Notes under the pieces: model-generated
Told to the model about the DNA's origin: nothing
The model's input: the letters and a program-made list of their open reading frames with translations, nothing else
Databases searched by the model: none
Made by a program: the position numbers and the translations under genes
Shown here: one piece after another, positions 1 through 17,055 of the stretch
Numbering within the stretch: the first letter of the stretch is position 1
Layout: the number at the start of each line of letters is the position of its first letter
Assembly (NCBI RefSeq): GCF_000378145.1
Contig: NZ_KB899293.1
Coordinates: 1-64,000 of the forward strand
DNA: 64,000 nucleotides
Source of the DNA: Saccharibacillus kuerlensis DSM 22868
GTDB lineage: Bacteria > Bacillota > Bacilli > Paenibacillales > Paenibacillaceae
Reading direction: 5' to 3'

Positions 1-141
1 CGGTCGCGTGTTGAAATCGAGAAAAGGGATTAAATTTTATTGGAATTTTCTCGATTTCAAAGGCGAACGCTGGCGCTCCTTCACTGAATTTCCTCTTCCG
101 CTCATTGGATTCTCACAAAAAAAGACTTTCTCGACACGTTG
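1..141 (+). repeat. Nested-palindrome element A, copy 1 (cut by window edge)
   Basis: This is the right part of a repeat found again at about 13.2 and 16.8 kb, in the same orientation. A perfect 15-bp inverted repeat pairs 11-25 with 46-60. It is followed by a conserved tract (about 61-103) and the conserved right end CTTTCTCGACACGTT. A terminator hairpin begins immediately after it. The left half lies outside the window. No protein could be encoded, so this is a non-autonomous element or a structured RNA. Confidence 0.85.
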
Positions 142-12930: not shown

Positions 12931-13169
12931 AATCAACCGCCATGTCCATATGGACACGGTCTGTATAGACGTACGTCTCTTCTATACGTGCTCCCCAAAG
13001 ATTCGTTGCGCAAAGTCTCAGAGACGTCCTTCTTTTCCCGATATTCCCATTCAGCATACGATTTCTTGGTGCTTGAGACAATACCTGAGGAAACCTTCGA
13101 AACCTTTTAGGTCACACACAGGTTCTACACCTACCCTGCATTTACCCATCATCATACGATTCAAAAGAC

Positions 13170-13205
13170 AAAAGACGCATACGCTCCGGGCGCGTGCGTC
13201 TTTCC
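13170..13205. terminator. Terminator hairpin, left copy flanking element A copy 2
   Basis: The hairpin starts AAAAGACGCATACGCTC and ends TGCGTCTTTC, with flanking A and T tracts. It matches the hairpin at 13407-13441 at 33 of 35 positions, and the two copies bracket repeat element A. It is about 290 bp upstream of the nearest gene start, so it serves no obvious gene end. Confidence 0.8.
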
Positions 13206-13406
13206 AGGTTGTTGAGAAAGTCCTATTCGCTTTGGAAGCTTAATGGCTGCGAGAGAAATTCGTTCCGGTCGCGTGTTGAAATCAAGAAAAAGGATTAAAT
13301 TTTAGTGGAATTTTCTCGATTTCAAAGGCGAACGCTGGCGCTCCTTCACTGAATTTCTCCCTTCGCACATCCGCTTCACTTTGAATCAAACTTTCTCGAC
13401 ACGTTG
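13206..13406 (+). repeat. Nested-palindrome element A, copy 2
   Basis: This element of about 200 bp has imperfect terminal inverted repeats (13210-13221 with 13390-13401, 11 of 12), a middle 9-bp stem (13253-13261 with 13351-13359) and an inner 15-bp stem with one mismatch (13276-13290 with 13311-13325). The core is nearly identical to copies 1 and 3. It contains no plausible gene. Identical locus-specific hairpins flank it on both sides, which suggests insertion into the putP terminator with duplication of the target. Confidence 0.88.
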
Positions 13407-13441
13407 AAAAGACGCATACGCTCAGGGCGCATGCGTCTTTC
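13407..13441. terminator. Terminator of putP, right copy flanking element A copy 2
   Basis: A strong GC-rich hairpin with A and T tracts lies 53 bp beyond the putP stop (minus strand). It is the partner of the hairpin at 13170-13205. Confidence 0.88.
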
Positions 13442-13494
13442 TTTGCTTTTAAATGCCGATATTTTTAATTTCCGCTGTCGCTGCACGCTTCTCT

Positions 13495-14949
13495 TCAGGC
13501 TTTGCGCTGCATGGAAGAAAAACTTGTACCCGCCCGGCCGCCTGTCAGCAGACTGACAACGACGATAGCAATCAGACTTATCGCAAATCCGGGAACAATC
13601 TCATACAGCATACTCTTGAGCGCCGGAACGTTGGACCAGATAATAACCGTAATTGCACCTGCGGTCATCCCCGCCAATGCCCCCCAGCGGTTCATCGACT
13701 TCCAGTACAAGCTCAGCAAAATGACCGGTCCGAACGAAGCGCCAAAACCGGCCCAAGCATAACCGACCAGCGTCAGAATCGTATCATTCTTCGTGTAAGA
13801 CAGCATCAGGGCCACTACCGCTACGGCCAACACAGCCAGACGGCTAAATGTGGTCAGCTCGCGATCAGACGCGCTGCGCCGAAGCAGCAGACGGTACAGA
13901 TCCTCGGTCAGTGAGCTGGATGTGACCAGCAGCTGCGAGGAAATGGTGCTCATTACGGCGGCGAGCAGCGCCGCCAGCAGGAATCCGGTAATAAACGGAT
14001 GGAACAGAATACGGGACAGCTCGATGAAGATGGTCTCGGGATCGCCCAGAGTTAGGCCTTGGCGTGAGAAGTAGGCTGCTCCGATCAAGCCGGTCAGCAT
14101 GGCGCCGCAGACCGAAAATATCATCCAGCTCATCCCGATCTGACGGGCACGCTTGATCTCTTTGACCGACGAAATCGCCATAAACCGGACAATGATATGA
14201 GGCTGTCCGAAGTAGCCGAGTCCCCATGCGAGCAGGGAGACAATACCCAGCGTGGTTGCATCTTTCAATGGGTCAAGCAGCGACGGATCCAAGGCGCGAA
14301 TCTCGTTCAGCGTACTTCCCGTTCCTCCGTTGCGAATCAATGCAGTAACCGGGACAAGAACCAACGCCAGAAACATAATGATTCCTTGAACAAAGTCTGT
14401 CCAACTTACAGCAAGGAAGCCGCCGAACAGCGTATAGGCGATCGTAACGCCGGCTACAATCCACAACCCCGTTCGATAATCGAGACCGAAGCTGGACTGG
14501 AACAGTACCCCGCCCGACACCATGCCTGACGAAATATAGAAGGTGAAAAAGATGATGATAACCAGCGCGGATACAAGCCGGATGATACGGGTTCCGTCGC
14601 CGAATCGATTCTCTAAGTAAGACGGAATCGTCATGGCGTCGCCCGCCTCTTCCGTATATGTCCGCAGACGCGGTGCCACATACAGCCAATTGGCATAAGC
14701 GCCGATCGTAAGACCAACCGCGATCCATCCTGCGCTTAAGCCCTGTGAGAACATGGCTCCCGGCAATCCCATGAGCAGCCAGCCGCTCATGTCCGAAGCT
14801 CCGGCACTCAGTGCGGTCACGGCCGGGCCGAGGCTTCTGCCTCCCAATACATAGTCGGACAAGCTCGACGTACGCTTGTACGCCATCCAGCCGATTAACA
14901 ACATCCCCGCCATATAAATGACAAGCGATATCCAGATTTGCGAATTCAC
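13495..14949 (-). CDS. putP: Sodium/proline symporter
   Basis: This is a 484-residue sodium:solute symporter with about 13 hydrophobic helices. Typical PutP sequence features are GGRSLGPAVTALSAGASDMSGWLLMG at the N-terminus (read in two overlapping blocks), RLRTYTEEAGDAMTIP, and the Na+-binding region SSQLLVTSSSLTEDL. It imports L-proline with Na+, for nutrition or osmoprotection. The start is GTG with GGAGG 9 nt upstream. The gene ends at the terminator that flanks element A copy 2. A pair of 14-bp direct repeats lies upstream, between it and the divergent peptide transporter gene. Confidence 0.93.
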   Translation of the reverse strand: MNSQIWISLVIYMAGMLLIGWMAYKRTSSLSDYVLGGRSLGPAVTALSAGASDMSGWLLMGLPGAMFSQGLSAGWIAVGLTIGAYANWLYVAPRLRTYTEEAGDAMTIPSYLENRFGDGTRIIRLVSALVIIIFFTFYISSGMVSGGVLFQSSFGLDYRTGLWIVAGVTIAYTLFGGFLAVSWTDFVQGIIMFLALVLVPVTALIRNGGTGSTLNEIRALDPSLLDPLKDATTLGIVSLLAWGLGYFGQPHIIVRFMAISSVKEIKRARQIGMSWMIFSVCGAMLTGLIGAAYFSRQGLTLGDPETIFIELSRILFHPFITGFLLAALLAAVMSTISSQLLVTSSSLTEDLYRLLLRRSASDRELTTFSRLAVLAVAVVALMLSYTKNDTILTLVGYAWAGFGASFGPVILLSLYWKSMNRWGALAGMTAGAITVIIWSNVPALKSMLYEIVPGFAISLIAIVVVSLLTGGRAGTSFSSMQRKA

Positions 14950-16760: not shown

Positions 16761-16789
16761 AAGAGGCCTTTCCACAGGAAAGGCCTCTT
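16761..16789. terminator. Terminator hairpin, left copy flanking element A copy 3
   Basis: The hairpin AAGAGGCCTTTCC-loop-GGAAAGGCCTCTT lies 20 bp after the peptide-transporter stop. An A-rich flank precedes it, but no T tract follows, because the sequence runs directly into element A. A perfect 27-bp copy is at 17027-17053. Confidence 0.88.
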
Positions 16790-17026
16790 GCTATCGAGAA
16801 AGTCCTATTCGTTTTGCAAGCTCAATGGCTGCGGGAGAAATTCGTTAGCTGATGCTTACGATGTGCCTTTCTTCGAAAGGCTTTAGGTCGCGTGTTGAAA
16901 TCGAGAAAATGGATTAAACTTTACAATTGGGTTTTCTCGATTTCAAAGGCGAACGTTAGCACTCCTTCACCGAATTTCTCCCTTCGCCTCCTCGTTTCAC
17001 TCGAAATCTGACTTTCTCGACACGTT
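16790..17026 (+). repeat. Nested-palindrome element A, copy 3
   Basis: This 237-bp element has three perfect nested stems: outer 11 bp (16794-16804 with 17010-17020), middle 12 bp (16833-16844 with 16971-16982) and inner 15 bp (16895-16909 with 16932-16946). Relative to copy 2 it carries about 35 extra bases near 16845-16885. It lies between perfect duplicates of the local terminator. It carries no gene. Confidence 0.92.
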
Positions 17027-17055
17027 GAGGCCTTTCCACAGGAAAGGCCTCTTTG
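17027..17055. terminator. Terminator hairpin, right copy flanking element A copy 3
   Basis: This is an exact 27-bp duplicate of the hairpin at 16763-16789. It is followed by TTTG, so it retains the T-rich right flank, while the left copy retains the A-rich left flank. It would also terminate the convergent rhaM transcript. Confidence 0.88.

What the first reader, a model, noticed from the sequence alone, without database searches (positions are those of the whole stretch)
13170..13441. A nested-palindrome element sits between two copies of the putP terminator
Hairpins at 13170-13205 and 13407-13441 match at 33 of 35 bases and bracket a 200-bp element with three nested inverted repeats. The element also occurs at 16790-17026 and 1-141, but the flanking hairpin sequence is different at each locus. 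So the hairpin belongs to the target, not to the element. The simplest model is a small mobile element that inserts into transcription terminators and duplicates the whole hairpin, a very long target-site duplication. The result would be a gene end with two terminators.
Basis: partly seen in the sequence, partly recalled or inferred. Interest (0 to 1): 0.88.

Follow-up and report, generated by a model that had tools for sequence, protein, structure and literature searches.

The report
Mobile element duplicating transcription terminator hairpins
A 200-base mobile DNA element in a soil-type bacterium, probably moved by a transposase of the IS1182 family, inserts at gene-end hairpins (terminators) and copies the whole hairpin, so the gene ends up with two stop signals instead of a broken one.

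Summary
The window (a Saccharibacillus relative) has a 202-bp inverted-repeat element at 13205-13406 between two copies of one terminator hairpin (33 of 35 bases equal). Of 84 copies with both ends recognised (9 genomes), 76 are bracketed by a direct repeat that is one locus-specific hairpin, 16-35 bp, mostly with an A-tract to its left and a T-tract to its right. In a close relative 4 of 6 examined sites are empty, with one hairpin. A 1.57-kb IS1182-family insertion sequence in the genus shares the element's ends and also duplicates hairpins; in L140 both sit in one terminator. Best reading: a MITE moved by an IS1182-type DDE transposase that reads the hairpin, probably as a cruciform, and joins at its two 5' feet, so hairpin length sets duplication length. 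Hairpin targeting by this family is known (IS1272 deletes the hairpin), as are IS1182-type MITEs (4-bp repeats). Whole-terminator duplication is a new variant of a known kind. Transposition itself was not observed.

The parts
13170..13204 (.). left copy of the duplicated terminator hairpin (target-site duplication)
   Evidence: 33 of 35 bases equal to 13407-13441, folds to a hairpin; the orthologous site carries one hairpin in G001, G010 and G005, read by eye
13205..13406 (+). the 202-bp element (MITE), no transposase gene
   Evidence: ends shared by copies across the genus; 42 matches in own genome
13205..13222 (+). left terminal inverted repeat; a common form in the genus is CAGGCTGTCGAGAAAGTC, this copy differs at 2 of the first 15 bases
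   Evidence: the common form has the same first 15 bases as the left end of the IS1182-type IS
13389..13406 (-). right terminal inverted repeat (read inward CAACGTGTCGAGAAAGT)
13253..13359 (.). internal nested inverted repeats (arms 13253-13261/13351-13359 and 13276-13283/13318-13325)
   Evidence: fold
13407..13441 (.). right copy of the duplicated terminator hairpin, next to the putP-like gene
   Evidence: ORF; best relatives at 86% identity in Saccharibacillus
16764..16786 (.). left copy of the duplicated hairpin at the second site
   Evidence: 23 of 23 identical to 17028-17050
16787..17027 (+). second copy of the element, 241-bp variant with an internal extra hairpin
17028..17050 (.). right copy of the duplicated hairpin at the second site
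1..141 (+). third copy, left part cut off by the contig start
142..166 (.). hairpin abutting the right end of the third copy (its left partner is not in the contig)

Best explanation
[quoted passage not shown] Shown by sequence: copies at many loci in many species, ends shared with an IS1182-type IS, insertion at intrinsic-terminator hairpins, and a target duplication that is one complete hairpin (16-35 bp), with empty sites that carry one hairpin. Inferred: the DDE transposase recognises the terminator palindrome as an extruded hairpin pair (cruciform), where the two 5' feet, 16-35 bp apart along the duplex, lie side by side. It joins the transposon 3' ends to both 5' feet, at the boundary between A-tract and stem. 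Gap repair then copies the whole hairpin to both sides. The gene keeps a terminator, the insertion is close to harmless, and the number of targets grows by one.
For: 76 of 84 copies with both ends have an abutting direct repeat above 99% of the mismatched-pair null (n=1660), 71 of 84 above the null maximum. Repeat length varies from 16 to 35 (mean 23.7) and follows the hairpin: outermost pair at the repeat's very ends in 48 of 76, fold more than 2 sd below mononucleotide shuffles in 74 of 76, A-rich left flank in 67, T-rich right flank in 64, both in 56 of 76. Empty sites: at 4 of 6 sites in a close pair of genomes (G010 occupied, G005 empty) the two flank matches overlap in the empty genome by one hairpin's length, 23, 23, 16 and 22 bp. 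Partner: the IS in L138, L139, L140, L316 (1568 bp) and L146 (1554 bp) begins CAGGCTGTCGAGAAA and ends TTTCTC(G/T)ACA..CTG; its larger ORF scores 292.5 bits on the NCBIfam IS1182 model (cut-off 270) and hits PF13751. IS copies are bracketed by palindromic exact direct repeats in 18 of 30 loci and 4 of 4 plasmid loci; control 1 of 156 stretches. L140: hairpin-IS-hairpin-MITE-hairpin in one terminator, read by eye.
Against: The element and the IS share only their ends; no internal homology was found. No intact partner was found in the window's own draft genome: no PF13751 match, only decayed IS pieces. G001 has duplications at 14 of 14 copies with both ends, mean identity 0.980, but no transposase match (9 of 21 candidates scored); G011, which has the IS, has duplications at only 2 of 4, mean identity 0.818. 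Repeat quality therefore does not track the partner's presence. 51 loci had no clear ends and were left out of the 84. Of the 84, L111 and L287 have intact ends but unlike flanks. The IS copy in L138 has two different hairpins at its sides; 12 of 30 IS loci gave no palindromic repeat. In the transposase tree the hairpin label is not more clustered than in shuffles (102 of 500 as low). Cruciform recognition is not tested; no transposition was observed.
Confidence: 0.86

Rival explanations
1. The transposase does not read structure. It recognises the sequence 5'-AAAR|A on each strand, i.e. a pair of inverted A-tracts, and the stem between them is incidental; the long variable repeat is just the distance between two A-tracts.
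For: The joint lies at an A-tract/stem boundary on both strands: A at -2 in 69 of 76 and at -3 in 65 of 76, first repeat base A in 57 of 76. Complementarity continues outside the repeat at -1/+1, -2/+2 and -3/+3 in 50, 63 and 58 of 76, so the cut is not at the outer end of the palindrome.
Against: A stagger of any length from 16 to 35 bp on plain duplex DNA would be unusual for a DDE transposase (established knowledge, not tested); a hairpin is present in nearly every repeat (74 of 76 fold more than 2 sd below mononucleotide shuffles). The related IS1272 is reported to hit hairpins without sequence consensus (PMC4923244, abstract and passages seen; PMC5678879, abstract, passages and part 1 of the Discussion read).
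Confidence: 0.15
2. Transcription-coupled targeting: the transposase or an accessory factor is drawn to the terminating RNA polymerase or the RNA hairpin, and the terminator DNA is hit for that reason.
For: Targets look like intrinsic terminators with T-tracts (64 of 76 T-rich on the right).
Against: It does not by itself explain why the two DNA strands are joined one hairpin length apart. Not tested here.
Confidence: 0.1
3. Not mobile: the doubled hairpins arose by local duplication or gene conversion and the element is a structural repeat between them.
For: Some copies have diverged or unlike flanks.
Against: Clean empty sites with one hairpin and nothing of the element at 4 of 6 sites; 41 or more matches in each of 7 genomes; ends shared with an IS.
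Confidence: 0.02
4. The element is mobilised by another transposase family (for example IS200/IS605-type HUH, REP-associated, or a group IIC intron that also likes terminators).
For: Those systems are known to use hairpins (recalled; REP transposases seen in the listing). Some genomes with many copies lack a detected partner (G001, G006, G012, G013, where not all candidates were scored).
Against: Terminal inverted repeats plus long target duplications do not fit HUH elements or group II introns (recalled properties); the IS1182-type IS in the same genus has the same kind of ends and the same footprint.
Confidence: 0.05

Closest known systems
IS1272 / TnSha1 (IS1182 family), stem-loop-replacing transposition
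   Same: Transposase family; hairpins, several of them confirmed terminators, as targets; no sequence consensus (PMC4923244, abstract and passages seen; PMC5678879, abstract, passages and part 1 of the Discussion read).
   Different: IS1272 is reported to delete the hairpin wholly or in part and to leave no target duplication. Here the hairpin is duplicated whole. Wan et al. drew that outcome as a hypothetical pathway b (attack at the 5' feet).
ISBspe1-like IS1182-family elements of Bacilli
   Same: The annotated ISBspe1-family copy in A. pseudofirmus (L351) is bracketed by a 20-bp palindromic direct repeat, as are IS1182-family copies on Brevibacillus, B. subtilis and B. pumilus plasmids.
   Different: These are autonomous; the window's element has no gene. 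I recall, without having been able to check it, that ISfinder-based tables list direct repeats of 0-60 bp for IS1182, which would mean that long repeats are already on record.
MITEPye1 (Paracoccus yeei) and ISMac2-related MITEs of Methanosarcina acetivorans
   Same: Non-autonomous elements of about 160 bp with IS1182-family ends or partner (PMC11578231, section 3.6 and passages read; PMC3852290, one table passage seen).
   Different: Direct repeats are given as 4 bp for MITEPye1, and as 4 and 0 for the two ISMac2 rows as I read the table's columns. No terminator targeting is described in the parts read.
Group IIC introns and REP/IS200-IS605 elements
   Same: Association with hairpins or terminators (recalled).
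   Different: No terminal inverted repeats with long target duplications (recalled); not tested further.

Membership tests
MITE (miniature inverted-repeat transposable element) | short, no transposase gene, many copies | tested here: met
   202 bp; 42 matches in own genome; matches in 10 of 16 genus genomes
MITE (miniature inverted-repeat transposable element) | terminal inverted repeats shared with an autonomous element | tested here: met
   CAGGCTGTCGAGAAA is a common left end of the element and the left end of the IS; right ends share TTTCTCGACA
MITE (miniature inverted-repeat transposable element) | target-site duplication and empty sites | tested here: met
   76 of 84 copies with both ends; 4 of 6 sites empty in a close relative
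MITE (miniature inverted-repeat transposable element) | mobilised in trans by the partner transposase | not testable with these tools
   needs a transposition assay
IS1182 family (for the autonomous partner) | transposase matches the family model | tested here: met
   NF033551 at 292.5 bits for the larger ORF (cut-off 270); the smaller ORF alone scores 214.4, below the cut-off for a whole protein; relatives annotated IS1182 family
IS1182 family (for the autonomous partner) | DUF772 plus DDE_Tnp_1_6 domains (recalled as typical) | tested here: met
   PF05598 in the smaller ORF, PF13751 and PF01609 in the larger
IS1272-type stem-loop replacement | target hairpin deleted, no direct repeat | tested here: not met
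   hairpin duplicated, not deleted
IS1272-type stem-loop replacement | target is a hairpin without sequence consensus | tested here: inconclusive
   stems are locus-specific, but an A-tract/stem boundary is preferred
Rfam RNA families | match to a curated family | tested here: not met
   5 matches up to E 10 in window 12950-13600, each far below its gathering score

The most novel reading that the evidence does not exclude
A DDE transposase clade measures its target by DNA secondary structure: it joins both transposon ends at the four-way junction of an extruded terminator cruciform, so the hairpin itself sets the stagger. Each insertion makes a second target of the same kind, so elements can stack in one terminator while the gene never loses termination. 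Polarity of attack (5' feet here, 3' feet proposed for IS1272) would then decide between duplication and deletion within one family.
Probability: 0.5. Interest if true: 0.75.

Novelty: new variant of a known kind. Interest (0 to 1): 0.6.

Why it matters
DDE transposons usually leave a short duplication of fixed length (established knowledge). Here the length follows the target hairpin, in 76 measured cases, which gives a direct readout of structure-dependent integration and makes an undecided mechanism (5' foot against 3' foot attack, cruciform against sequence) testable with simple target plasmids. It also shows a mobile element that hits a functional site and leaves the function doubled, which may explain how dozens of copies persist at gene ends.

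Tried and rejected
An IS1182-type transposase in the own genome: none found with PF13751; decayed pieces only. The idea that repeat quality would be highest in genomes that hold an intact IS was checked and not borne out (mean identity: G001, no IS detected, 0.980; G003 0.973 and G010 0.972, with IS; G011, with IS, 0.818). Rfam gave nothing. A tree of 44 transposase rows (of 50 loci; 4 repeat loci and rows with short or no matches dropped) was built to see whether hairpin duplication marks one clade: all 22 labelled rows fall in one weakly supported group of 37 (91/84, drawn open), and none among the 7 most distant rows, but the label is not more clustered than in shuffles (102 of 500 as low); many copies are old or cut by contig ends.

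The eight copies below the threshold: L006, L016 and L120 show the duplicate with small length differences; L314 has a weak repeat (16 of 25); L111 has two different hairpins; L287 abuts sequence found inside the 241-bp variant; L116 and L118 have poor end matches (3 and 3 mismatches) and no repeat. 13 of 148 copies were dropped as duplicates or as too near a contig end, besides the 51 without clear ends.

Literature: ten searches; none of the titles and abstract starts listed, nor the passages read, reports whole-terminator duplication by an element. The library lacks most subscription papers and a main IS review was not held, so absence from print is not shown. Structure prediction of the transposase was not run.

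Full report
What was checked. At 13170-13204 and 13407-13441 lie two copies of one hairpin, equal at 33 of 35 bases. Between them is a 202-bp element, 13205-13406, with inverted ends and two further nested inverted arms. A third copy is cut by the contig start at 1-141, with one hairpin visible at 142-166.

How general it is. The element has 42 matches in its own genome, and 10 of 16 genomes of the genus have matches. I collected 149 loci from 10 genomes, chosen by similarity of the element itself and not by their flanks; 148 had a match (the other, L316, was fetched for its IS), 129 were unique, and 124 of those had both flanks. In 88 of 124 the left and right flanks resemble each other more than in 99.9% of mismatched pairs (n=3073). 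With controls taken only within the same genome (n=2408) it is 87 of 124, and 21 of 36 in the window's own genome; G012 has 0 of 3, G011 2 of 8 and G006 4 of 10.

What the repeat is. 84 unique copies, from 9 genomes, had both element ends recognisable and enough flank; 51 loci had no clear ends and were left out. In 76 of 84 a direct repeat abuts the element above 99% of the null (n=1660), and in 71 above the null maximum. The repeats are 16-35 bp long (mean 23.7), 33 of 76 perfect; 74 of 76 fold more than 2 sd better than mononucleotide shuffles, and in 48 of 76 the outermost bases of the repeat pair with each other. Left of the repeat lies an A-tract (67 of 76), right of it a T-tract (64 of 76; both in 56): the repeat looks like the stem-loop of an intrinsic terminator. 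The cut is at the boundary of A-tract and stem, not at the end of the whole palindrome, since pairing continues outside at -1/+1, -2/+2 and -3/+3 in 50, 63 and 58 of 76.

Empty sites. I took two 19.9-kb stretches of G010 (its contig C44 has the length of the S. qingshengii record) and searched them in G005, G003 and G000. Of 6 elements there, 4 have an orthologous site in G005 with one hairpin and no element, where the flank matches (80-96% identity) overlap by 23, 23, 16 and 22 bp. Of the other 2, one had no spanning flank match among the loci fetched and one has two different hairpins at its sides. Read by eye, the window's first site has a single hairpin in G001, G010 and G005; of the other three relatives with a match there, G012 has a longer hairpin, and G006 and G011 a different hairpin and another inverted repeat. 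The second site has one recognisably related hairpin in G001 and G012; G010 has its own insertion there, bracketed by its own, different hairpin, so that terminator was probably hit twice independently; G005 has lost part of that terminator; the other 8 relatives have other sequence there and were not compared further.

The partner. PF13751 matches in G003, G010, G011 and G018 lie in an insertion sequence of 1568 bp (1554 in G018) whose left end begins with the same 15 bases as a common form of the element's left end. The window's copy differs from it at 2 of 15. Its two overlapping frames score 292.5 and 214.4 bits on the NCBIfam IS1182 model (cut-off 270 for a whole protein). Its copies in L139, L140, L146 and L316 are bracketed by duplicated hairpins; L138 is not. 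In L140 the order is hairpin, IS, hairpin, element, hairpin: both elements used one terminator (read by eye). In the family, 18 of 30 loci of this transposase (one per genome; one of them the L139 copy again) have palindromic exact direct repeats 1.41-1.61 kb apart, and 4 of 4 plasmid loci from other Bacilli do too, against 1 of 156 control stretches. Of the 20 PF13751 loci tested, only L139, L140 and L146 showed it; three of the other 17 (L138, L149, L150) are close relatives, the rest more distant or fragments. The own genome holds decayed IS pieces but no PF13751 match.

How it most likely works. DDE transposases join both transposon 3' ends to the two strands of the target, and gap repair copies what lies between. 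For a 16-35 bp repeat whose length follows a hairpin, the simplest target is the extruded hairpin pair, where both 5' feet meet at one junction. Wan et al. 2017 drew this as a hypothetical pathway b, beside the 3'-foot attack they propose for IS1272, which deletes the hairpin (abstract, passages and part 1 of the Discussion read). Shown here: targets, repeat, empty sites, shared ends. Inferred: cruciform, 5'-foot attack, mobilisation in trans. The result is a gene with two terminators, and a new target next to the element.

What is known. Hairpin targeting by the IS1182 family is published, with hairpin loss. MITEs with IS1182-family ends are published, with 4-bp repeats. I recall that ISfinder-based tables list repeats of 0-60 bp for the family, but could not check it. 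Nothing listed or read in the ten searches reports whole-terminator duplication. I therefore file this as a new variant of a known kind.

Limits. No transposition was observed. Genomes without a detected partner also hold copies with well-kept repeats (G001, 14 of 14 copies with both ends). First-look limits of the genome search scored only part of the candidates in copy-rich genomes, so copy numbers are lower bounds, and the loci analysed are the better-conserved copies.

Noticed in passing
L353:16946-17158 (G010); G000:C28:13054-13255: A second repeat family of about 185 bp: 24 matches in G003 and 3 in the window's genome in the truncated list. By eye it has inverted AACGAATCCT/AGGATTCGTT arms.
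   Followed up: no
window 16787-17027 and L010, L029, L027, L170: Longer variants of the element carry one of two extra internal hairpin stretches of about 40 bp at fixed places, as if small hairpins are swapped or inserted inside it.
   Followed up: partly
L139 and L146, left end of the IS: The first 28 bases of the IS form a strong hairpin followed by TTTCTT, or close to it, i.e. a terminator-like end that could block incoming transcription.
   Followed up: partly
L139, L140, L146 transposase frames: The two frames overlap at AAAAAAG, a likely -1 frameshift site; the two frames cover the two halves of NCBIfam's IS1182 model. Frameshifting was not tested.
   Followed up: partly
window 1; G000 contigs C17, C23, C30, C37: Several contigs begin or end inside the element (C17 and C23 at the same element base), so the draft assembly breaks on it.
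   Followed up: no
L224 and L225, downstream of putP in G006 and G011: Another inverted-repeat element with AATTCGT/ACTGAATT-type arms lies near the putP end; by eye it resembles the middle arms of the window's element.
   Followed up: no
L287 (G010:C22:188900-189800): The right flank of this copy is sequence found inside the 241-bp variant, so one element seems to have inserted into another (by eye).
   Followed up: no
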